Below, piece by piece: positions 5,993 to 15,281 of a stretch of 64,000 bases of DNA. The notes under the pieces were generated by a model. It did not search any database. It was given only the letters and a program-made list of their open reading frames with translations, and was not told the origin of the DNA. Numbering within the stretch: position 1 is the stretch's first letter; each line of letters begins with the position of its first letter. The translations under genes and the position numbers were made by a program. Source of the stretch: Actinomycetales bacterium JB111 (GTDB lineage Bacteria > Actinomycetota > Actinomycetes > Actinomycetales > Actinomycetaceae); contig FUHX01000013.1 in NCBI GenBank assembly GCA_900163555.1, positions 1 to 64,000 on the forward strand, written 5' to 3'.

Positions 5993-6149
5993 CCCGCCGC
6001 TCCGCAGCATGCTCGGTAGGCCGCTGCCAGACGCGCCACCTGCCCGCAGATCGATGCCTGACCCGCGCGTCGTCGCGTTACCCGCGCGCTGTCGCCTGAC
6101 CCTCCGCGCCGCCACCTCGCCGCTCCGGCCGCACCCACCCGAACATGCG

Positions 6150-6210
6150 TCGAGACACCTCGGTCCGGGACGGAACTCGCGAAGTTCCGTCCCGGACCGA
6201 GGTGTCTCGA
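6150..6210. terminator. 28-bp perfect inverted repeat between convergent genes
   Basis: Arms at 6150-6177 and 6183-6210 are perfect reverse complements over 28 bp around the 5-nt loop cgcga. The element lies between the end of the plus-strand kinase gene and the end of the minus-strand flavoprotein gene. A bidirectional terminator is the simplest reading. The arm is much longer than the 10-20 bp of the other terminators in this window and no T tract follows, so a dispersed palindromic repeat is the alternative. Confidence 0.6.
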
Positions 6211-6258
6211 TGACGGGTGAGCGCTCAGCACGCCCGCGCGCTCACCGCGCGCGGGCGG

Positions 6259-7950
6259 TCACCACTCGCGTTCGGTGGGGATGAGCGATCCGGGGTTGAG
6301 GTTGCGCCCGGGGTCCGCGGAGGACAGCAGGCCGACCATGAGGTCGAGGCCCGCGGTCGAGATGTCCTGCTCCATCCACGGCGCGTGGTCGGTGCCGACG
6401 CCGTGGTGGTGGGACAGCGTGCCGCCGCCGTCGATGAACGACTGCTGGACGACCTCCTTCAGGCGCCAGTACTGGTCGAGCGGCGCCTCGGCCCCCTCGC
6501 CCTCCAGCGGCGGGAACGCGAACGTGAAGTACAGGCAGGCGCCCGCGTGGTAGCTGTGCGAGAGGTGGCACATGATGTACCCCTTCACACCGATCTCGTC
6601 GTACACGCGGTGCGCGCCGGCGATGACCCGCTCGTAGATGCCGCGCAGCTTCGACCACGGGGCGGCGGTCTCGGAGACGTCGGCAAGCGCGCCGCGGTCG
6701 AGCAGGAAGTCCCGGATGTACGGGGTGTCGAACTTCTTCTGGTCGTACATGGCGCCCGGGCCGGTGCCGAGGCCGATGCCGCCGTGCGCGGAGACGATCT
6801 TGCCGACCGCCTTGCGCTGGTAGGCCACGTGCTTCGGGGATCCCTCGTAGCCGACGTAGCTGAGGCACACCTCGTTCAGGTCCCAGCCGCGCTTCGCCAG
6901 CAGGTCGAAGATCCCGGTGGAGATCTTCCCCTTGATGCCGGTCTGCGCCTTCTGGGTGGCGAGCGAGAACTGGGTCTCGTACGGGTCGGAGACGCGCGTG
7001 ATCGACGGGTGCACGTCGGACGTCGAGATGGTGCGCATGGCCTCGAGCGCGCTGCCCCAGTTCTGGAACAGGTAGGCGACGACGAGGCGCTTCTCGGGCA
7101 CGCGGTGCACGTGGATCCAGGCCTCGGTGACGACGCCGAGCCGCCCCTCGGAGCCGATGATCATCTCGCGGACGGACGGGCCGGTCGACGTCGACGGCAG
7201 CGGCCGGATCGTGACGACCTTGCCCGGCAGCACGCTGCGCAGGCCGCGCGTGATGTCGGCGATGTCGCCGTAGCGGTCGGACTGCATGCCGGACGACCGG
7301 GTGGCGATCCACCCGCCGAGCGTGGAGTGGCGGAAGGAGTCGGGCTGGTGACCCGCGGTCCACCCGAGCGCGGCGAGCTGCTCCTCCAGGTCCGGGCCGA
7401 GCACGCCGGCCTGGACACGTGCGAGCCCGGAGTCCTCGTCGATCTCGAGGACCTTGTTCATCCGCCCCATGTCGAGGGAGACGATCGGCCGCTCCTCGTC
7501 GGCGGGGGGCGTGAGCGACCCGGAGATGTTGGAGCCACCGCCGAACGGGATGATCACGGCGTCGGCCGCCGTGGCCAGGTCGACGACCTCCCGCACCTGG
7601 TCCTCGTCGGCCGGGTAGACGACGACGTCGGGAACGCGCGGCAGGTCGCCGGCGCGGACCTTGACGAGGTCGGAGATGCCCTTGCCGTAGGTGTGGACGA
7701 CACGATCCTGGTCGTCGGTGACGACGTTTCCCTCGCCGACGGCGGACGCCAGGCCCTTCGCGAGCACGCCCGGCAGACGGCTGGCCGGGACGGAGATCTC
7801 GCCGAAGTCGGGCGGCGGGGTGCCCTCGGTCCACAGGTCGAGGCCGACCTTGTCCAGCACGAAGGGGGCGAAGTTCGGCTTGTTCTCGTGCGTGAAGGTC
7901 ACGCCCTCGACGCCCCACCCCCACCACTTCATGTGCTGGACCTCGGTCAC
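6259..7950 (-). CDS. FAD-binding oxidase, alkyl-DHAP synthase-like
   Basis: A 563-residue flavoprotein of the FAD_binding_4 (VAO/PCMH) superfamily. It most resembles alkyl-dihydroxyacetonephosphate synthase, which swaps the acyl chain of acyl-DHAP for a fatty alcohol to create the ether bond. Seen: an N-terminal MKWWGWG, typical of this group; FAD-binding segments VIIPFGGGSNISG and SFRHSTLGGWIATRSSGMQSDRYGD (read here in two parts); IIGSEGRLGVVT; a C-terminal Tyr-His region SHSYHAGACLYFTF; and LSHHHGVGTDH, equivalent to the catalytic histidine tract of the eukaryotic enzyme. The GTG start at 7950 has AGGAGG just upstream and overlaps the acyltransferase stop as GTGA, so translation is coupled. 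It is the last gene of the lipid operon. A glycolate or lactate oxidase-like activity is the main alternative. Confidence 0.8.
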   Translation of the reverse strand: MTEVQHMKWWGWGVEGVTFTHENKPNFAPFVLDKVGLDLWTEGTPPPDFGEISVPASRLPGVLAKGLASAVGEGNVVTDDQDRVVHTYGKGISDLVKVRAGDLPRVPDVVVYPADEDQVREVVDLATAADAVIIPFGGGSNISGSLTPPADEERPIVSLDMGRMNKVLEIDEDSGLARVQAGVLGPDLEEQLAALGWTAGHQPDSFRHSTLGGWIATRSSGMQSDRYGDIADITRGLRSVLPGKVVTIRPLPSTSTGPSVREMIIGSEGRLGVVTEAWIHVHRVPEKRLVVAYLFQNWGSALEAMRTISTSDVHPSITRVSDPYETQFSLATQKAQTGIKGKISTGIFDLLAKRGWDLNEVCLSYVGYEGSPKHVAYQRKAVGKIVSAHGGIGLGTGPGAMYDQKKFDTPYIRDFLLDRGALADVSETAAPWSKLRGIYERVIAGAHRVYDEIGVKGYIMCHLSHSYHAGACLYFTFAFPPLEGEGAEAPLDQYWRLKEVVQQSFIDGGGTLSHHHGVGTDHAPWMEQDISTAGLDLMVGLLSSADPGRNLNPGSLIPTEREW

Positions 7951-8774
7951 GATGCCTCCTCCTGGCCCCTCGGGCCACTCGTTGCGGACGTGGGACGCGC
8001 GACCACGACGTCGGGCGTGCGTGCCTGGTACATGGCGACGACCTGCGCGCGGATGCGGTCGTTGAACTCGCGGATCCGCTCGCCGTTGCGCGGGCGCATC
8101 GGCTTGCCGATGACGACCTTCACGGGCGGGCGGCCGCGGGTGGGCCAGTTCTGGCCGACCGGCATGGCCTCGTGGAAGCCGATGAGAGCGACCGGGACGC
8201 ACGGGATCCGGCGGGTGACGCACAGGGCGGCGACGCCGGGCTTGAAGCGCCCGATCGAGCCGTCGCGCGAGCGCGTGCCCTCGGCGAAGATCAGCAGCGG
8301 GACACCGGCGTCCACCAGCCGCGCGGACAGCCCTGCGCGCCGACGGTTCCCGGTGCGGTCGACCGGGTAGGTGTTGAAGAACATCGCGGTGAGCACGCGC
8401 ACGATGCGCTTCGTGTAGAACGTGTCCCCGGCTGCGGCCGTGGCCACCTTGCCGGCGTGCTGCCACGGCATGATCGCGTGCAGGACCGCCGTGTCGAGGT
8501 GCGAGTTGTGGTTCGGCGCGATGACGAACGGGCCGCGGACCTTCTTCAGGTTCTCGCGCCCGACCACGTCGATCTTCGTCATCCCGTGGACGACCGCGTT
8601 GAGCGGCCCCTTCTGCGCGAGGACGCGCCCGAAGCGCCAGATCCCCGACGTGTACTGGAGGATGCCGTCCCCGGCCTTGTCGACGACGCGGCCCGCGGCG
8701 TTCCTCGCCGCGCTCGCGGCGCGGGCGGGGCGCGCGGGCTCCGGGGGCGCAGACTCCATCGGTAGGGCGCTCAT
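7947..8774 (-). CDS. PlsC-like lysophospholipid acyltransferase
   Basis: Membrane-associated glycerol-phosphate acyltransferase of the LPLAT family, 275 residues. Block I is present as NHNSHLD (HX4D catalytic motif) and block III as FAEGTRSRDGSIGRF. These bind and activate the phosphate-bearing acceptor for transfer of an acyl chain from acyl-CoA or acyl-ACP. The ATG at 8774 is preceded by GGGAGG with a 6-nt gap and overlaps the SDR stop by 4 bp; its own stop overlaps the next gene by 4 bp. In this operon it could acylate DHAP or alkyl-glycerol-3-phosphate rather than the usual 1-acyl-glycerol-3-phosphate. That choice is inference from the neighbours only. Confidence 0.85.
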   Translation of the reverse strand: MSALPMESAPPEPARPARAASAARNAAGRVVDKAGDGILQYTSGIWRFGRVLAQKGPLNAVVHGMTKIDVVGRENLKKVRGPFVIAPNHNSHLDTAVLHAIMPWQHAGKVATAAAGDTFYTKRIVRVLTAMFFNTYPVDRTGNRRRAGLSARLVDAGVPLLIFAEGTRSRDGSIGRFKPGVAALCVTRRIPCVPVALIGFHEAMPVGQNWPTRGRPPVKVVIGKPMRPRNGERIREFNDRIRAQVVAMYQARTPDVVVARPTSATSGPRGQEEAS

Positions 8775-9553
8775 CGCCGACCTCCCTGGATCTTCCGAGA
8801 AATGGCCCGCACGGCAAACTTCGGTCCGTGCTCCGCACCGAAGGCGAGGACCTTGTACCGCCACGACGGGATCGACCGGACCTGGCCCCGCTCCGCGGCG
8901 TCGAGGGACTCGGTGACGACCTGGTCGACGTCGAGCCACAGCTCGTCCGGGATCTTACCGGTGGACATCCCGGCCCGCTCGTGGAACTCGGTGCGGACCC
9001 ACCCCGGCATCACGCAGGTGACGGTCACCCCGGTGCCCTCGAGCTCCATGCCGAGGGACTCCGAGTAGCTGTTCACCCACGCCTTGATGGCGGAGTAGTG
9101 ACCGGTCGCGATCATCCCCGAGATCGAGCCGATCGTGATGATGACGCCGCTCCCCCGCGAGCGCATGGCGCGCGCGGCCGCGGCGCCGGTGTCGAGCACG
9201 GCGCGGATCATGAGGTCGATGGCCGCGTGGTGGCTGGACATGTCCTCGGCGGTCAGCGGCGTGTACAGGCCGTGGCCCGCGTTGTTGACGTACACCTCGA
9301 CCGGCGAGTCCTCGCTGGCGAGGCGCTCGACGACCGTGGCGACGCCGTCGGGCGTGGCGAGGTCCGCGACGACGATCTCGACGTCGACGCCCAGGGCGCG
9401 CAGCTCGGCGGCGGTCGACTCGAGGCGCTCCGCGTTGCGGGCGACCAGCACGATGTCGAGCCCGCGCAGCGCGAGGTGGCGCGCGTAGCCCAGTCCGATG
9501 CCGGAGGTGCCGCCCGTGACGAGGGCGCGTCCGGTGAGTCGACGCGCGCTCAT
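8771..9553 (-). CDS. Short-chain dehydrogenase/reductase
   Basis: Classical SDR of 260 residues with an NAD(P) Rossmann fold. Cofactor motif TGGTSGIGLGYA lies near residues 13-24, NNAGHG follows the fourth strand, and the catalytic Ser-Tyr-Lys set is seen as GSISG followed by YSAIK. The C-terminus is basic. The gene overlaps the reductase fusion upstream and the acyltransferase downstream by 4 bp each (ATGA), so it belongs to the same message. In the ether-lipid reading of this operon it would reduce the keto group of alkyl- or acyl-DHAP, the step that follows the synthase. Substrate assignment is inference; the family call is secure. Confidence 0.85.
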   Translation of the reverse strand: MSARRLTGRALVTGGTSGIGLGYARHLALRGLDIVLVARNAERLESTAAELRALGVDVEIVVADLATPDGVATVVERLASEDSPVEVYVNNAGHGLYTPLTAEDMSSHHAAIDLMIRAVLDTGAAAARAMRSRGSGVIITIGSISGMIATGHYSAIKAWVNSYSESLGMELEGTGVTVTCVMPGWVRTEFHERAGMSTGKIPDELWLDVDQVVTESLDAAERGQVRSIPSWRYKVLAFGAEHGPKFAVRAISRKIQGGRR

Positions 9554-11814
9554 GCGCGACCTCGCACGGCGCGCCAGACCGGCGCGAGCCGGGACTCGGC
9601 GGTCCGGGACCAGGTGACCACCGGCCAGCGCTTGGCCCGCGCGTAGGCGTAGAGGTCGGTGTCGGGGTTGACCGCGGTCGGGTTGCCGACCTGGTCCAGC
9701 CAGGCGCGGTCGGCGTAGGCGTCGCCGTAGGCGAACGACGACGACAGGTCCCAGCCGTGCTCGCGGGCCGCCCGGACCAGCCAGGCCGCGCGGGCCTCGC
9801 CGACCAGCGGCGAGACCGCGAGGTGACCGGTCCAGTTCCCCTCGTCGTCGACGTCCATCTTCCCGGCGACGATGTGGTCGAACAGGTCGCCGAGCGGCTC
9901 GACGAAGACGTCGATCTCGCCGGTCACGAGCACCGTCCGGTGCCCGGCCGCGCGGTGCTCGGCGATGCGGGCGAGCGCCTCGGCGTGCAGGTTCGCGCGC
10001 AGCGACGGTGCGAGGCGCTCGGCGACGAGGTCGCGCATCTCCTGCTCGGACCGGCCGGCGTAGCGGCGCATGACGCGGCGGATGAACTCGCCGCGGTCGC
10101 GCCGGTCGGCCGTGAGGTAGGTGGGGGCGCTCGCGACGGCGCCGACCATGGCGCCGGGCCAGCGACGCACGCCGCCCTGGAGCTCCGCCCACAGCAGGTG
10201 CTCGACCGGCGTGGACCGGGCGATCGTCCGCTGGAGGTCGAAGACGGCGACGACGTCCTCGCGCCTGGGCAGCGCGGCCGCCGAGACCGGCTGCACGCCC
10301 GACGACGAGGAGCGGCGCTCGCGCAGCAGTCCCGGGACGTTCGGGATGTGCACGTCCTGGAGATAGACCTGCCAGTCGATCTCGGCGACGTCGAAGCCGT
10401 GCTCGACCTTGCGGTCCTCCGGCAGGGCGTCGTGCAGGGTACGCGTGTTGCGGTCGTCGAAGATGACCTCGGTCTGCGTGTACGGCTGGTAGAGGTCCGT
10501 GAACTTCCGCAGCGTGCGCAGGTCGCGGCCGGCCTTGTACAGCGTGGACGACCACGAGCGGGTGCGGTCCGAGGCGGGCAGGCGGCGCAGCACGCGGTCG
10601 GCGGACTTCACGAGCTGCTCCCGCCGCGTGATGCTCCGCTCCACGGCCGGGCCGTGCGGGAACGTCCAGCGCGGGACCTTGACGACGACGCCCTCGGCGT
10701 CGGACAGCGGGTTGGCCTCGAAGTACTCACGGACGAGCTCGTAGAGCCGGCCGAACCGCAGCGGGTTCGTCAGGCCGGAACCCACCTGGTAGTAGTTCGG
10801 CGCGCTCGGCTCCGGGGGCGTCGCGGCGGCCGCGAGGATCGCGTTGACGACGAAGTCGACCGGGATGACGTCGAGGATCGAGTCCGCGACGGCCGGGAAC
10901 TCCGGCAGCATGCCGCGGCCGTAGGCGGCGATGAGCGGGTCCGCCACCTTGAACCCGTCGATCCAGCCCGGGTACGGGTGGCGGAACGCGGACTCGATGA
11001 TCGTCGGACGGACGACCGACAGGCGGTGCTCGGCGCCCCACGAGGTCTCGGCGACGCGCTCGCCGAGTGCCTTGGTGAACGTGTAGACGTCCGGCCAGCC
11101 GAGCGTGCGCGCCCGGTTGCGGCCGGCGTCGACGAGGGACTCGCGGACGAACGAGTTCCGGGCCTCCTCGGCGGCCTCGGAGACCGCCTGGGCGCCGGCC
11201 CGGCCGTGCTCCGCCGTCGCGGTGGACAGGAAGGCGGCGAGGCGGCGCGGGTTGCGGGAGTCCTGCTCCGCCCGGTCGAGGGAGGCCCGCGCGGAGTCGA
11301 GCTCGACGCGCCAGTCCACCTCGTGCTCGAGGGAGGTCTCCTCGGAGACACCCTTGCGCAGCCCGGCCACGTAGCAGGTCGAGACGTGCACGACGTGCGG
11401 GTCCGAGCCGGAGGCGTGGATCTTCTCGTACAGCCCGACGGGGCCGCCGACGTTCGAGGCGAAGGCCTCGTTGATCGGCAGGTCGAAGGACACGGTCGAC
11501 GCGGAGTGCACGACGACGTCGAGGTCCCCGGGCAGGTCCGGGACGTCGCCGAGGTCCCCCTCGAGGACGTTCACACGGCGGGCGAGCTCGCGGTCCGCGG
11601 CCTCGTCACCGACCGACTCGCGCCACGACGCGAAGACCGGCTTGCGGATCAGTCGCTTGATCCGGTCCTCGCCGGAGATCTGGCCGCGCGGGCGGACCAG
11701 AACGGTCACGGTCGTGGTCGGGTACGCCGACAGCAGCTTCTCGAGGACCGCCTGCCCGACGAATCCCGTGGCACCGGTGATGAGGATGTGTGCGCCATCC
11801 AACGGAAGAGTCAC
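9550..11814 (-). CDS. Fatty acyl-CoA reductase fused to a HAD-IB domain
   Basis: A 754-residue two-domain protein. Residues 1-about 490 form a fatty acyl-CoA reductase of the extended SDR (male-sterility/NAD_binding_4) type: ITGATGFVGQAVLEKLL at the N-terminus, VHSASTVSF, and YTFTKALGE carrying the Tyr-x-x-x-Lys pair. It should reduce a long-chain acyl-CoA to the fatty alcohol. Residues about 520-740 form a HAD-IB (SerB-like) domain with motif I as VFDLQRTIA, motif II in VLVTGEIDVFVEPL and motif IV as YGDAYADRAWL. Motif I has Gln where the second Asp of DxD is expected, so phosphatase activity may be lost. It is the first gene of the lipid operon. The start is GTG directly after a TAGAGT hexamer with a 6-nt gap and no Shine-Dalgarno sequence. 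Confidence 0.85.
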   Translation of the reverse strand: MTLPLDGAHILITGATGFVGQAVLEKLLSAYPTTTVTVLVRPRGQISGEDRIKRLIRKPVFASWRESVGDEAADRELARRVNVLEGDLGDVPDLPGDLDVVVHSASTVSFDLPINEAFASNVGGPVGLYEKIHASGSDPHVVHVSTCYVAGLRKGVSEETSLEHEVDWRVELDSARASLDRAEQDSRNPRRLAAFLSTATAEHGRAGAQAVSEAAEEARNSFVRESLVDAGRNRARTLGWPDVYTFTKALGERVAETSWGAEHRLSVVRPTIIESAFRHPYPGWIDGFKVADPLIAAYGRGMLPEFPAVADSILDVIPVDFVVNAILAAAATPPEPSAPNYYQVGSGLTNPLRFGRLYELVREYFEANPLSDAEGVVVKVPRWTFPHGPAVERSITRREQLVKSADRVLRRLPASDRTRSWSSTLYKAGRDLRTLRKFTDLYQPYTQTEVIFDDRNTRTLHDALPEDRKVEHGFDVAEIDWQVYLQDVHIPNVPGLLRERRSSSSGVQPVSAAALPRREDVVAVFDLQRTIARSTPVEHLLWAELQGGVRRWPGAMVGAVASAPTYLTADRRDRGEFIRRVMRRYAGRSEQEMRDLVAERLAPSLRANLHAEALARIAEHRAAGHRTVLVTGEIDVFVEPLGDLFDHIVAGKMDVDDEGNWTGHLAVSPLVGEARAAWLVRAAREHGWDLSSSFAYGDAYADRAWLDQVGNPTAVNPDTDLYAYARAKRWPVVTWSRTAESRLAPVWRAVRGRA

Positions 11815-12035: not shown

Positions 12036-13577
12036 ATGGGCGTCCAGGACGCTCGGCAGTGGCTGCCCGCAGCCTTTGCTCGCAGCGCGGCCGCGGTCGG
12101 CGCGACCGCCGACCGCGAGGAGCTCGAGGAGCACGCCCGGGGTCTCGTCGACCGGTGGTCCGGCCAGGAGCGGCACCACCACGGGCTCAAGCACCTCGTC
12201 AAGGTCCTCACCGTGGTCGACGAGATCGCCCAGGAGACCCACCACCCGGACCTCGTGCGGCTGGCGGCCTGGTACCACGGCGTCGTCTTCTCGGTCGACG
12301 AGAGGCGGGCCTACCGCCGCGCGGCCGGCGAGGACGAGGCCGCGTCGGCCGACGTCGCCGAGGTCGAGCTCGCCGGGCTCGGGGTCCCGGCCGACGCCGT
12401 CGCCCGCGTCGGCGAGCTCATCCGGCGGCTGCGCGGGCACGACTGCGACACGCGCGACATCGACCAGCTCGCGCTCGTCGACGCCCACCTCGCGATCCTT
12501 GCCAAGAGCCCGCAGGACTACCGCACGTACCGGGAGACCGTCCGCCGCGAGTACTCCCACCTGCCCCCCAGGCACTACCTCCAGGCGCGGATCGCGATCG
12601 TCGATCGCCTCCTCGCCCGACGACGGATCTTCGGCTCCCCCATGTGCGTGACCTGGGAGGAGCCCGCCCGGGAGAACCTCACCTCCGAGCTGGCGATCCT
12701 CACCGAGGAGCTCGCGGAGCTCGGGCCGGACGGCCCCGAGGGCGACATCTCCGCCGCCGAGCACGAGGCGGCCGTCGAGCCCGAGGTCATCGGGGGTTCG
12801 CGGGGCGTGGTCCCGGAGGACGACGGCGCGGGCTCGGGCGACCCGGCGGCCGGCGGTTCGGTGAGCGCCGATCCGGCTGCCGGAGGTTCGATCACCGACG
12901 GCCCGGAGGGCCGTGGCCCGTCGGCCGGCGGCTCGGCCACCGACGGCTCGCGCGCGAAGCCGCGGACGACGTCGGCATCCGGCCCTCCCCTCCCCCACGA
13001 CGGCGCCTCCCGGCGGTTCCCCGTGCTGCCGGGCGGCGGGCCCGAGACCGATCGCCGGCTTGCCGCCGGCGAGCCCGACCCGCTGCGCCGCCCTCCGCAC
13101 CGCGAGGCGCGGCCCGGGGCCGAGCCCGCCGGCGCGGGCACACCCGGGCCCCGCGGTGAGCGGGACCGGTCGCCGGAGCGCCCGTCGATCGCGGACCGCA
13201 TCAGGTTCGGGCCCGCGGGGCGAGCGCCGTCGCCGTCCGAGTACAGCACCGGCACCTCCACCCTCGAGTCCGTACCGGACCTGCTGCGCGGCCCGCTCGG
13301 CGCTGCCGCCGGACCGGGGAGGAAGGGTGGCCCAGGGAAGCCGTCGGGTCCGGGCGAGACGACCGTCCCGGTTCCGCCGGAGGCACCGCTCCCGTCGGGT
13401 CGGGGCCGGCCGGGCGGGCCCGGAGAGGCAGGCGGACCGGCGCTGCCGACCGGCCGTCGGAGCGAGAGCGCGACGAGCGGACGAACGCCCAGCGCCCCCA
13501 GCCCCGAGGACACCGAGGAGCGCTCGGGCATGGAGCGCGACCCGGACGACGTCTTCCGACCCCGCCGCCGTCGCTGA
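12036..13577 (+). CDS. HD-superfamily protein with degenerate active site and disordered tail
   Basis: A 513-residue protein. The first 235 residues align with the predicted metal-dependent HD phosphohydrolase family (COG4339-like), seen by comparison with the paralogue at 14174-15281: RHHHGLKHL, LAAWYHGVVF, REYSHLPPRHYLQARIAIVDRLL. The usual WFHD of the metal site reads WYHG and the usual DADLAIL reads DAHLAIL, so two metal-binding Asp residues are missing and catalysis is doubtful. The remaining 280 residues are a Pro/Gly/Ala/Ser-rich tail with repeated AAGGS-like units, without domain similarity. Upstream TACGAT at 11951-11956 may be its -10 box, giving a leadered message. Function is unknown; a regulatory or binding role for the HD fold is possible. 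Confidence 0.7.
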   Translation: MGVQDARQWLPAAFARSAAAVGATADREELEEHARGLVDRWSGQERHHHGLKHLVKVLTVVDEIAQETHHPDLVRLAAWYHGVVFSVDERRAYRRAAGEDEAASADVAEVELAGLGVPADAVARVGELIRRLRGHDCDTRDIDQLALVDAHLAILAKSPQDYRTYRETVRREYSHLPPRHYLQARIAIVDRLLARRRIFGSPMCVTWEEPARENLTSELAILTEELAELGPDGPEGDISAAEHEAAVEPEVIGGSRGVVPEDDGAGSGDPAAGGSVSADPAAGGSITDGPEGRGPSAGGSATDGSRAKPRTTSASGPPLPHDGASRRFPVLPGGGPETDRRLAAGEPDPLRRPPHREARPGAEPAGAGTPGPRGERDRSPERPSIADRIRFGPAGRAPSPSEYSTGTSTLESVPDLLRGPLGAAAGPGRKGGPGKPSGPGETTVPVPPEAPLPSGRGRPGGPGEAGGPALPTGRRSESATSGRTPSAPSPEDTEERSGMERDPDDVFRPRRRR

Positions 13578-13824: not shown

Positions 13825-14115
13825 ATGGCACGGTTTCAGGTCGACAGCGCCGAGGTACAGACTGCGGCGGCGCAGGTGAGGACGACCGCGGGCGCGGTCC
13901 GCACGGAGGTCGGCACGATGATGGCGCACCTCCTCACGCTCCAGACCACGTGGACGGGCACCGCGGCGTCGTCCTTCACCACGTGCTCCGAGCAGTGGCG
14001 GGCCCTGCAGTCGCAGGTGGAGGCGAATCTCGACGAGATCTCGCTCGCGCTGGACTCGGCGGCTCGCGGGTACGAGGACGCGGAGACGGCCGCGCACGGG
14101 ATGTTCGCCGTGTAG
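13825..14115 (+). CDS. WXG100-family (ESAT-6-like) protein
   Basis: A 96-residue helical-hairpin protein of the WXG100 family, small proteins exported by type VII (ESX) secretion as dimers. The turn motif reads WTG in LQTTWTGTAASSF (residues about 41-53), flanked by two amphipathic helices without signal peptide. An acidic-aromatic stretch YEDAE near the C-terminus resembles the YxxxD/E export signal of this family. The ATG at 13825 has GGAAGGGGA just upstream. No ESX ATPase, mycosin or partner WXG100 gene is nearby; it stands between two HD-domain genes. It may be secreted by an ESX system encoded elsewhere. Confidence 0.85.
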   Translation: MARFQVDSAEVQTAAAQVRTTAGAVRTEVGTMMAHLLTLQTTWTGTAASSFTTCSEQWRALQSQVEANLDEISLALDSAARGYEDAETAAHGMFAV

Positions 14116-14161
14116 CCGGGCGGCCGGGGTCCGAGTCGACGGATCGCCGGGGGAAGCGACC

Positions 14162-14167
14162 TACGCT
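14162..14167 (+). promoter_or_regulatory. -10 hexamer TACGCT, leaderless DUF4031-HD gene
   Basis: TACGCT, six bases (ctacgc), then the ATG at 14174. No ribosome binding site precedes the start, so a leaderless message is predicted. Confidence 0.55.
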
Positions 14168-14173
14168 CTACGC

Positions 14174-15281
14174 ATGGCTCTGCTCGTGGACGAACCCCTG
14201 TGGCGCGCCCACGGCACCACGTGGTCGCATCTCGTCTCCGACCACTCGCTGGCCGAGCTGCACGCGTTCGCGCGGGGGCAGGGACTCCCCCGGCGATCCT
14301 TCGACCTCGACCACTACGACGTCCCAGCGGGCTCGGTCCCCGCGCTCGTGGCGGCCGGCGCCGAGCCGGTGGACCGGCGCACGCTCCTGTCGCGCCTGCG
14401 CGCCGCGGGACTGCGGGTTCCCGGCGGCGAGCGCGAGCGCGCGCGGGCGGAACGGCGCGGGTCCGATCTCGCCACCCAGTGGGCGGCGCTCGGTGAGGCG
14501 CTCGGGGTCGGGGATGGGGTCGGGAACCCGGCGGGGTCGGCGCCCGGCGAGGCGGTCTGGGCCGGGTCCGATGCCGGGTCCGATGCCGGTGCGGGGCCGT
14601 GCCGATGCCGATGCCGATGCCGATGCCGATGCCGATGCCGATGCCGATGCCGATGCCGATGCCGATGCCGATGCAAGCACCGGGACCGCGAGCTCGGCAT
14701 GGTCGGCACTCGGGTCGGACCTCCTGGCCCGCTGGGGCGAGCCGCACCGGACCTATCACGACCTCCGGCACCTCGAGGCGGTCCTGCTGGACCTGGACCT
14801 TCTGCGCCTGGACGGTGCCGACGTCACGCCGGAGGTCCTCCTCGCGGCCTGGTTCCACGACGCCGTCCACGACGGCTCGACCCCGCAGGACGAGCAGGCC
14901 TCGGCGGCCCTCGCGCTGCAGGCACTGGGCGGACCCGCCCTCTCGGCGGTACTGCCCGAGGGGATCGTGACGGAGGTGGCCCGCCTCGTGCGCGTCACCG
15001 CCGACCACCGGGCGCAGGACACGGCGGCGGCCATCCTGTGCGACGCCGACCTCGCGATCCTCGGCGCACCGGAGAACCGTTACCGCGCCTACGCGGAGGA
15101 CGTGCGCCGCGAGTACTCCCACGTCACGGACGACGACTTCGCCCGCGGACGCACCGCGGTGCTGACCTCGCTCCTGTCCGCCGGACGCATCTTCGCCACC
15201 GACGCCGGTCACACCCGGTGGGAGCTGCGGGCACGGTCGAACATCGCCGCCGAGCTCGACCGCCTCGCGCGAGGCGCATAA
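14174..15281 (+). pseudogene. DUF4031-HD phosphohydrolase, frameshifted beside a hexanucleotide tract
   Basis: The first part (14174 to about 14590) encodes a DUF4031 domain: MALLVDEPLWRAHGTTWSHL, HYDVPAG, LRAAGLRVPGGERER. The HD phosphohydrolase domain continues only in the next frame: EPHRTYHDLRHLEAVLLDL, AAWFHDAVHDG, DEQASAALALQ, DADLAILGAPENRYRAY, with all metal ligands intact. Dropping one G from the GGGG run at 14593-14596 restores one frame and gives a 368-residue DUF4031-linker-HD protein whose linker is (Ala-Asp)12. Either a real frameshift, a programmed shift, or a sequencing/assembly error at a low-complexity site would explain this. An in-frame ATG at 14571 could restart the HD part (236 residues), but it lacks a ribosome binding site. 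Confidence 0.75.
14601..14674. repeat. (GCCGAT)12 hexanucleotide microsatellite
   Basis: Twelve perfect copies of gccgat plus a partial one. In the HD-domain frame they encode twelve Ala-Asp pairs; in the DUF4031 frame they read Cys-Arg pairs. Gain or loss of units alone cannot move the frame. Confidence 0.95.

What the first reader, a model, noticed from the sequence alone, without database searches (positions are those of the whole stretch)
6259..11814. Four-gene overlapping operon that reads as a bacterial ether-lipid pathway
Seen: acyl-CoA reductase-HAD fusion, SDR, PlsC-like acyltransferase and alkyl-DHAP synthase-like flavoprotein on one strand, each overlapping the next by 4 bp (ATGA, ATGA, GTGA). 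Known: ether-lipid synthesis needs a fatty alcohol (reductase), acyl-DHAP (acyltransferase), alkyl exchange (alkyl-DHAP synthase) and keto reduction (SDR-type reductase). All four activities are matched by family, in one coupled message. Inference: this organism makes 1-O-alkyl glycerolipids. Myxobacteria are the bacterial precedent I recall for this logic; a compact actinobacterial operon of this form would be worth describing.
Basis: partly seen in the sequence, partly recalled or inferred. Interest (0 to 1): 0.75.

Follow-up and report, generated by a model that had tools for sequence, protein, structure and literature searches.

The report
Actinobacterial ether-lipid gene operon
Four overlapping genes in this actinobacterium look like a kit for building ether-linked membrane lipids by the chemistry that animal peroxisomes use, and relatives carry two extra genes beside the kit, one of them for a probable iron enzyme.

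Summary
In detail: FAR-HAD, SDR, PlsC and AGPS genes lie on the minus strand of window 6259-11814, overlapping by ATGA, ATGA, GTGA. The flavoprotein is an AGPS homologue: 382 bits to Dictyostelium AGPS against 77 to the best glycolate/lactate-oxidase-type chain, AGPS fold over residues 4-560, and R419, R515, Y578 and H615-617 kept. The reductase matches FAR. PlsC and SDR fit, but their substrates are not shown.

FAR-HAD is linked in 18 of 36 named loci and found outside the flanks held in 12 of 17 tested unlinked genomes, one copy partial. In 59 relatives, all 9 with this AGPS clade have full-length FAR-HAD, against 3 of 50 without.

New here: the fused HAD has lost catalytic residues. Relatives carry two further genes beside FAR-HAD: X2, a desaturase-like di-iron protein, and a degenerate paralogue, X1. 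The window's genome holds this pair on another contig.

AGPS-type ether-lipid synthesis is known, including a Myxococcus xanthus operon (PMC9131029, passages). This is a new variant. I found no lipid data for this organism.

The parts
9550..11814 (-). Gene 1: fatty acyl-CoA reductase fused to a HAD-IB domain. FAR part is about aa 1-502; HAD part is aa 523-719 (9658-10248)
   Evidence: PF07993 152.8 bits, PF03015 39.5 bits, PF12710 106.8 bits; PDB 7eoz E 8.9e-54, Z 35.7 over model 2-501; TGxTGF and YxxxK kept in 19 of 19
8771..9553 (-). Gene 2: classical SDR, proposed alkyl(acyl)-DHAP reductase
   Evidence: PF00106 131.6 bits; TGGTSGIG, NAG and YSxxK kept in 19 of 19; substrate inferred
7947..8774 (-). 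Gene 3: PlsC-like acyltransferase, proposed DHAP acyltransferase and/or 1-alkyl-G3P acyltransferase
   Evidence: PF01553 73 bits; NHxSHLD 18 of 18, EGTR 17 of 18; only PDB match at E<=0.001 is 5kym, a 1-acyl-sn-glycerol-3-phosphate acyltransferase, E 3e-10
6259..7950 (-). Gene 4: alkyl-DHAP synthase (AGPS) homologue, FAD-dependent ether-bond-forming enzyme
   Evidence: PDB 2uuu E 5e-113 and 4bby E 4e-84 against 1e-20 for the next family; Z 38.8 to 4bc9; R319, R413, Y474, H514-516 (numbered from the GTG at 7950) match guinea-pig R419, R515, Y578, H615-617. Searches used the stretch from 7959, three residues longer at the N-terminus
6150..6210 (.). 61-nt palindrome between the convergent AGPS gene and histidine-kinase gene; possible bidirectional terminator, one copy of a dispersed repeat
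   Evidence: 28-nt arms, 100% complementary, 5 nt between; fold of 6135-6262 z -10.9; 11 places in the genome, this one counted

Best explanation
The operon encodes an AGPS-type route to 1-O-alkyl (plasmanyl) glycerolipids. Proposed steps: the FAR domain reduces fatty acyl-CoA (or acyl-ACP) to a fatty alcohol; an acyltransferase (the operon's PlsC or another PF01553 enzyme of the cell) makes 1-acyl-DHAP; the FAD enzyme AGPS exchanges the acyl chain for the fatty alcohol and makes the ether bond; the SDR reduces alkyl-DHAP to 1-alkyl-glycerol-3-phosphate; a PlsC enzyme adds the sn-2 acyl chain; ordinary phospholipid enzymes finish. Shown here: gene anatomy, family membership and active sites of AGPS and FAR, conservation and co-occurrence. 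Inferred: every reaction in this organism, the substrates of PlsC and SDR, and the role of the HAD domain (probably structural or regulatory rather than a normal phosphatase). In several relatives the system also has two further proteins, X2 (di-iron type) and X1 (degenerate paralogue), which may act on the alkyl chain.
For: AGPS: 381.9 bits to Dictyostelium AGPS and 286.6 to guinea-pig AGPS against 77.1 to the next family. Predicted fold (pLDDT 79.6): the first 37 of 50 Foldseek rows shown are AGPS; VIA Z 36.0-38.8 over model 4-560, against at most 33.0 for D-lactate dehydrogenases, which align from residue 62. All six tested positions (R419, R515, Y578, H615, H616, H617) are kept in 85 of 91 aligned rows, the window, Dictyostelium and guinea pig counted. 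By my count on the alignment they include, with one constant offset of 3, Dictyostelium R352, R447 and Y508, which a figure legend in PMC3509576 names as important by mutagenesis (passages). FAR: match to 7eoz (rice DPW with NADP) over residues 2-501, Z 35.7. Linkage: FAR-HAD adjacent in 18 of 36 loci; outside the flanks held in 12 of 17 unlinked genomes tested, 11 full-length and 1 partial. Co-occurrence 9 of 9 against 3 of 50, Fisher p 1.8e-8, not corrected for relatedness. The M. xanthus operon MXAN_1676-1674 has the same logic (AGPS, FAR-acyltransferase, dehydratase-family protein; PMC9131029, passages).
Against: I found no lipid analysis of this organism, and none showing alkyl ethers in close carriers. 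PlsC and SDR specificities rest on family alone; Propioniciclava (L044) has no PlsC hit between SDR and AGPS, and 7 loci (Kribbella, Nonomuraea, Pseudokineococcus; L037 is cut short by its contig) show no SDR hit beside PlsC and AGPS. Full-length FAR-HAD occurs in 3 of 50 relatives without this AGPS clade, so it has at least one other use or partner. Five of 17 unlinked genomes with the AGPS clade have no full-length FAR-HAD. In M. xanthus, disrupting the AGPS homologue lowered ether lipids only slightly (PMC9131029, passages), so an AGPS gene need not mean abundant ether lipid. Y and HHH are also kept in more distant paralogues. The model is of low confidence at residues 518-521, next to the HHH motif.
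Confidence: 0.8

Rival explanations
1. The pathway ends in vinyl-ether lipids (plasmalogens): the X2/X1 pair, a soluble di-iron desaturase-like protein with a degenerate partner, desaturates the alkyl ether in place of CarF/PEDS1.
For: X2 and X1 flank or precede FAR-HAD in 13 of 18 FAR-HAD-linked named loci and in G012, and form a tandem pair elsewhere in the window's genome. X2 keeps the set E, ExxH, E, ExxH in 13 of 13. FA_desaturase_2 is its best Pfam match in 5 of 6 scanned and second in 1, over cut-off in 1 of 6. Its best natural PDB match is a DesA2 desaturase, E 0.0017, after a designed helix bundle. Subtercola, in the same family (Microbacteriaceae) as several carriers, has dimethyl acetals, the usual derivative of vinyl ethers (recalled), one of them at 17% in S. 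vilae (PMC5945732, passages).
Against: No Subtercola locus was seen here. The Lacisediminihabitans profunda description has no occurrence of 'DMA' in its main text (PMC7033078, find). Four of 9 AGPS-clade relatives show no X, and one X-bearing relative has neither this AGPS nor full-length FAR-HAD. No X was found in 5 of the 18 FAR-HAD-linked loci. Such proteins could equally desaturate or hydroxylate ordinary acyl chains.
Confidence: 0.12
2. The end product is a neutral ether lipid (alkyl-diacylglycerol or free alkylglycerol), with the HAD domain as the phosphatase that removes the phosphate.
For: The HAD-IB domain is fused to FAR in one ORF in the window and the 18 linked loci. M. xanthus makes the alkyldiacylglycerol TG-1 and its elb operon holds a HAD protein, ElbB (PMC9131029, passages).
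Against: The motif I second Asp is Q, H or E in 18 of 19, and the position I take for the motif III Lys is Arg in 19 of 19, so a normal HAD phosphatase is unlikely. No WS/DGAT hit in the genome, but that control was silent.
Confidence: 0.1
3. The flavoprotein is an oxidase or dehydrogenase of the glycolate/D-lactate type, and FAR makes fatty alcohol for another purpose such as wax; the operon is not an ether-lipid pathway.
For: Same Pfam pair PF01565 and PF02913 and a TIGR00387 glcD match. Full-length FAR-HAD exists without this AGPS clade in 3 relatives.
Against: TIGR00387 scores 137 against a cut-off of 568. AGPS beats the oxidases by over 300 bits and the R515 equivalent is kept. The other match of this genome at E<=1e-30 (L018), which lacks R515, shows no such margin (164 bits to AGPS, 141 to D-lactate dehydrogenase).
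Confidence: 0.05

Closest known systems
Myxococcus xanthus MXAN_1676-MXAN_1674 operon (PMC9131029, passages read)
   Same: An AGPS homologue in one operon with a fatty acyl-CoA reductase, an acyltransferase domain and a protein of the dehydratase/epimerase class.
   Different: There FAR is fused to the acyltransferase, here to a HAD domain. The reductase here is a classical SDR. Genes and order differ, and the host is an actinobacterium. X2/X1 are not mentioned in the passages read.
Mammalian peroxisomal ether-lipid pathway (FAR1, GNPAT, AGPS, acyl/alkyl-DHAP reductase; outline in PMC9131029, passages)
   Same: Same proposed chemistry; AGPS is homologous with its active site kept, and the FAR domain has the two domains of that family.
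   Different: One bacterial operon instead of separate genes; a PlsC-type acyltransferase instead of GNPAT; no CarF/PEDS1 family match in this genome.
M. xanthus elb operon (ElbD route; PMC9131029, passages)
   Same: Makes alkyl ether lipid; contains FAR-like and acyltransferase domains and a separate HAD protein.
   Different: ElbD is a multidomain FAR/acyl-CoA synthetase/ACP/acyltransferase protein without AGPS; that architecture is not in this operon.
Ger / PlsA-PlsR anaerobic routes (PMC9702350, PMC11150832, passages)
   Same: Bacterial production of alkyl or alkenyl ethers.
   Different: They reduce an existing ester. PF09989, which I took from memory as a PlsA marker, gives no match in this genome, with the control ringing in 4 of 14.

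Membership tests
Alkyl-DHAP synthase (AGPS/ADPS) | FAD_binding_4 plus FAD-oxidase_C, nearest solved relatives AGPS by a clear margin | tested here: met
   382 and 287 bits against 77; for fold
Alkyl-DHAP synthase (AGPS/ADPS) | Catalytic Arg and Tyr (Dictyostelium R352, R447, Y508; guinea-pig R419, R515, Y578) and the HHH motif | tested here: met
   the three Dictyostelium residues named important in PMC3509576
Alkyl-DHAP synthase (AGPS/ADPS) | N-terminal region beyond the oxidase core, with the KWxGWG motif | tested here: met
   KWWGWG in the window, KWNGWG in Dictyostelium (a weak separate alignment of -0.7 bits); fold alignment starts at residue 4-6 for AGPS and 56-73 for the other families listed
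Alkyl-DHAP synthase (AGPS/ADPS) | Forms alkyl-DHAP from acyl-DHAP and fatty alcohol | not testable with these tools
   Needs an enzyme assay
Alcohol-forming fatty acyl-CoA reductase | NAD_binding_4 plus C-terminal Sterile domain, YxxxK | tested here: met
   Both Pfam cut-offs passed; YTFTK, 19 of 19 YxxxK; 7eoz over 5-502
Alcohol-forming fatty acyl-CoA reductase | Produces alcohol rather than aldehyde | not testable with these tools
   Needs an enzyme assay
HAD-IB phosphatase (fused domain) | DxDx(T/V) motif I and motif III Lys (motifs recalled) | tested here: not met
   DLQRT in the window; D+2 replaced in 18 of 19; Arg at the Lys position in 19 of 19. A HAD domain by PF12710, but not shown to be a phosphatase
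GNPAT-type DHAP acyltransferase | GNPAT/PlsB-type sequence and DHAP specificity | tested here: inconclusive
   PlsC-type motifs (NHxSHLD, EGTR); PDB match is a 1-acyl-G3P acyltransferase; specificity cannot be read from this
Alkyl/acyl-DHAP reductase | SDR with catalytic motifs and this substrate | tested here: inconclusive
   SDR motifs in 19 of 19; best NCBIfam model is mycolate reductase, below cut-off; substrate not tested
Aerobic plasmalogen system with CarF/PEDS1 | PF10520 desaturase in the genome | tested here: not met
   No match in G000 (genome 98% complete); the same search rings in 12 of 296 genomes of the phylum sample

The most novel reading that the evidence does not exclude
Aerobic actinobacteria have their own complete plasmalogen system: AGPS, FAR-HAD, SDR and PlsC make plasmanyl lipid, and the X2/X1 pair (a soluble acyl-ACP-desaturase-like di-iron protein plus a degenerate partner) makes the vinyl ether. 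This would be a third way to make that bond besides CarF/PEDS1 and PlsA/PlsR, and could account for dimethyl acetals reported in some Microbacteriaceae. The window's genome would have all six genes, two of them on another contig.
Probability: 0.12. Interest if true: 0.85.

Novelty: new variant of a known kind. Interest (0 to 1): 0.57.

Why it matters
Ether lipids made by AGPS chemistry are thought of mainly as eukaryotic, with myxobacteria as the studied bacterial case. A conserved, compact gene set in several actinobacterial families, including cultured genera (Ruania, Occultella, Pseudactinotalea, Propioniciclava), gives tractable strains in which to test every step, and markers (R515-positive AGPS plus FAR-HAD) for predicting producers from genomes. 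The X2/X1 genes give a concrete candidate for a lipid-modifying di-iron enzyme, and the degenerate HAD fused to FAR is an open question of its own.

Tried and rejected
GlcD/D-lactate oxidase reading of the flavoprotein: rejected on score margin, R515 and fold coverage. The VIA list is a second look at Foldseek's own rows, so absent families are not excluded.

HAD domain as an ordinary phosphatase: considered and set aside because of the motif losses. The rows shown by the FAR-HAD fold search cover only the FAR part, so the HAD part was not tested structurally.

CarF/PEDS1 route and PlsA anaerobic route in this genome: no match. alone had a silent control; one search supplied one that rings. 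WS/DGAT: no match, but the control was silent, so nothing is concluded. PlsY: no match, with controls ringing in 8 of 14; not followed up.

Neighbouring genes in ten places of Propionibacteriaceae, Kribbella, Actinoplanes and others: 2 of the 10 proteins scanned (L048, L072) are short NAD_binding_4 reductases lying divergently from AGPS; none of the other eight hit a reductase family.

Tree of 91 AGPS-like rows (quick method): the window groups with 11 FAR-HAD-linked rows (support 98). The two PDB AGPS rows fall beside the actinobacterial clade with support 93 but on long branches that the tool flags, so no claim on eukaryotic origin is made.

Literature searches. In these listings I saw no paper describing this four-gene operon, the FAR-HAD fusion or X2/X1; the library lacks most subscription journals, so this is not proof of absence. 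The Rubrobacterales ether-lipid paper (Sinninghe Damste 2023) was seen only as a title in a reference list. All papers cited here were read as passages found by term, none whole.

Counting choices. The AGPS clade threshold (about 600 bits, 50% identity) was set, where 13 of 59 pass E 1e-30; the four weaker ones (G005, G027, G053, G057) were counted as lacking the clade, and G053 and G057 are two of the three FAR-HAD genomes without it. In one search, 31 of 59 pass E 1e-20; I counted the 12 with a match across nearly the whole model and dropped 19 that match the HAD part only. The Fisher tests do not correct for relatedness. In one search three of the unlinked loci (L037, L038, L050) have a contig end within 5 kb upstream of AGPS, so linkage there cannot be judged. 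One search scored only the best three candidates of each genome. G048 and Occultella (L020) carry identical AGPS rows and may be one organism.


Full report
Observation. On the minus strand: FAR-HAD 9550-11814, SDR 8771-9553, PlsC-like 7947-8774, AGPS-like 6259-7950. The junctions read ATGA, ATGA and GTGA. Pfam gives NAD_binding_4, Sterile and HAD in the first gene, adh_short in the second, Acyltransferase in the third, and FAD_binding_4 with FAD-oxidase_C in the fourth. The window lies on contig C35 of a 3.26 Mb genome.

The flavoprotein is an AGPS homologue. phmmer against the PDB gives Dictyostelium AGPS at 381.9 bits and guinea-pig AGPS at 286.6; the next family, a chain named glycolate oxidase, has 77.1. 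The curated glcD model scores 137 against a cut-off of 568. The predicted structure (22 sequences, pLDDT 79.6, pTM 0.82) has AGPS entries in its first 37 Foldseek rows. In VIA-align it gives Z 36.0-38.8 to AGPS over residues 4-560 and at most 33.0 to D-lactate dehydrogenase from residue 62 on. Residues 518-521 of the model, next to the HHH motif, have low pLDDT, so residue identity rests on the sequence alignment. Read from that alignment, guinea-pig R419, R515, Y578 and H615-617 fall on R, R, Y and HHH; PDB titles name 4bca as Tyr578Phe and 4bc7 as Arg419His. By my count with a constant offset of 3 the same Arg, Arg and Tyr are Dictyostelium R352, R447 and Y508; PMC3509576 (passages) names these three as important by mutagenesis. 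As a control, of 91 aligned AGPS-like rows 85 carry all six residues. The three GlcD-type outgroups carry EAHGEH. The own-genome paralogue L018 and L019 (from relative G005) keep Y and HHH but lose the R515 equivalent, and L017 has one His changed. L018 scores 164 bits to AGPS and 141 to D-lactate dehydrogenase, so it has no such margin. Y and HHH alone are therefore weak evidence; R515 plus the margin is better.

The reductase. The first 502 residues match 7eoz, a fatty acyl-CoA reductase titled rice DPW with NADP, at E 8.9e-54 and Z 35.7. The motif TGxTGF and YxxxK are kept in 19 of 19 operons, that is the window and the 18 FAR-HAD-linked loci. The fused HAD domain keeps the nucleophile Asp and motif IV, but the second motif I Asp is Q, H or E in 18 of 19 and the position I take for the motif III Lys is Arg in 19 of 19. 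I read it as a degenerate or altered HAD, not a normal phosphatase. This is an inference from motifs; the motif definitions are recalled.

PlsC and SDR. PlsC motifs NHxSHLD (18 of 18; L044 has no PlsC) and EGTR (17 of 18), and SDR motifs (19 of 19), are intact. Their substrates cannot be read from family. PlsC scores below the cut-offs of all five NCBIfam models listed, and the SDR's best model, below cut-off, is mycolate reductase. The genome has four PF01553 matches and no PlsY match, so the source of acyl-DHAP is open.

Conservation. The search for related loci gave 55 loci, 36 of them with an AGPS of 54% identity or more. Of these 36: 7 have the four genes in line (L020, L021, L022, L023, L025, L039, L059); 11 have FAR-HAD divergent from SDR-(PlsC)-AGPS (L044 without PlsC); 7 have SDR-PlsC-AGPS only; 7 have PlsC-AGPS without SDR; and 4 have AGPS with at most a weak PlsC. 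In L037, L038 and L050 the contig ends within 5 kb upstream, so their linkage cannot be judged. I searched 17 of the 18 genomes without linkage (L037 left out) plus 3 linked ones. Of the 17, 11 hold a full FAR-HAD outside the flanks held, 1 (L050's) a partial one at a contig end, and 5 hold none. In 59 relatives including the window's genome, the AGPS clade is in 9 (of 13 with any match at E 1e-30) and full-length FAR-HAD in 12 (of 31 with any match at E 1e-20, the rest HAD only), with all 9 shared; Fisher p is 1.8e-8, uncorrected for relatedness. In 8 of the 9 the two genes are on the same contig within about 3 kb. Across 396 genomes of the phylum, AGPS-like matches at E 1e-60 or better occur in 82, so wider AGPS-like genes are common. 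A tree of 91 rows puts the window with 11 FAR-HAD-linked rows (support 98).

A further pair of genes. In 9 Microbacteriaceae-type loci a gene of about 280 aa (X1) overlaps the FAR-HAD start, and a second (X2) follows FAR-HAD. In Occultella and three Ruania loci X2 and X1 precede FAR-HAD in one run of six genes. One locus, L047, is from a record labelled Acidobacteria but falls among Microbacteriaceae in the tree, probably a mis-binned contig. In the other 5 FAR-HAD-linked loci (L021, L025, L044, L059, L070) no X was found. The window's genome has the X2/X1 pair on contig C26, away from the operon. X is in 5 of 9 AGPS-clade relatives and 2 of 50 others (p 0.0005, uncorrected). X1 has no Pfam or NCBIfam match at E 0.001 (six X1 scanned in Pfam beside the window genome's own, four in NCBIfam). 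X2 keeps E45, E77xxH80, E141 and E171xxH174 in 13 of 13, while none of 14 X1 keeps the set. FA_desaturase_2 is X2's best Pfam match in 5 of 6 scanned and second in the sixth, over cut-off in 1. In the PDB its profile hits a designed helix bundle first and then the natural desaturase DesA2, E 0.0017. I conclude that X2 is probably a soluble di-iron protein related to acyl-ACP desaturases; that it acts on ether lipids is only a guess from gene neighbourhood.

How it most likely works. Fatty acyl thioester to fatty alcohol (FAR); DHAP to acyl-DHAP (an acyltransferase); acyl-DHAP plus alcohol to alkyl-DHAP (AGPS, through a flavin adduct as reviewed in PMC3509576, passages); alkyl-DHAP to 1-alkyl-G3P (SDR); sn-2 acylation (PlsC). 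No CarF/PEDS1 family match is found in this genome, so plasmanyl rather than plasmenyl lipids are expected unless X2 supplies the desaturation.

Comparison with what is known. PMC9131029 (passages) describes MXAN_1676-1674 in M. xanthus: AGPS, a FAR-acyltransferase fusion and a dehydratase-family protein. Disruption of MXAN_1676 lowered ether lipids only a little. PMC11868695 (passages) reports AGPS homologues in many phyla including Actinobacteria by sequence search. A paper on ether lipids in Rubrobacterales, also actinobacteria (recalled), was seen by title only. So actinobacterial ether lipids and bacterial AGPS operons each have precedent; this gene order, the FAR-HAD fusion and the X2/X1 association did not appear in the listings of my searches.

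Dimethyl acetals. Subtercola species show them, iso-C16:0 DMA reaching 17% in S. vilae (PMC5945732, passages). The Lacisediminihabitans profunda description has no occurrence of the term DMA (PMC7033078, find), which speaks against the idea for that genus. I did not have a Subtercola locus, so this stays a lead.

Verdict. It is a new variant of a known kind, interest 0.57. The boldest reading not excluded is a separate aerobic plasmalogen system with X2/X1 (probability 0.12).

Noticed in passing
Own genome G000:C26:111879-113377 (L164:6727-8378, minus strand); also L020, L022, L023, L039, L030, L032-L035, L043, L046, L047, L049, L132: Tandem or flanking pair X2 (complete di-iron ligand set, weak FA_desaturase_2 match) and X1 (degenerate paralogue, no family match), tied to FAR-HAD in relatives.
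   Followed up: partly
L139:2903-6065 (genome G184, contig C68); also G083, G334 and others of one family: PF10520 (CarF/PEDS1 family, which by recall also holds other desaturases) in 12 of 296 genomes of the phylum sample. In L139 it lies convergent to a FAR-like gene followed by the end of an AGPS-like gene: a possible aerobic plasmalogen cluster, or a mis-binned 6-kb contig.
   Followed up: partly
window 6150-6210: 61-nt palindrome between convergent genes; 11 places in the genome, this one counted, carry similar copies, so it is a dispersed palindromic repeat family, perhaps terminators.
   Followed up: partly
window 14568-14674: Six-base tandem repeat (CCGATG, 18 copies) inside ORF 13950-15281, giving an Ala-Asp run. 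That ORF and 12036-13577 look like paralogues by eye and gave no Pfam match.
   Followed up: no
L029:8040-8984: Kribbella locus: a luciferase-like monooxygenase (PF00296) sits between PlsC and AGPS.
   Followed up: no
G000 whole genome: No PlsY (PF02660) match while 8 of 14 control genomes ring: the first acyltransferase for ordinary phospholipids may be another enzyme, perhaps one of four PF01553 matches.
   Followed up: no
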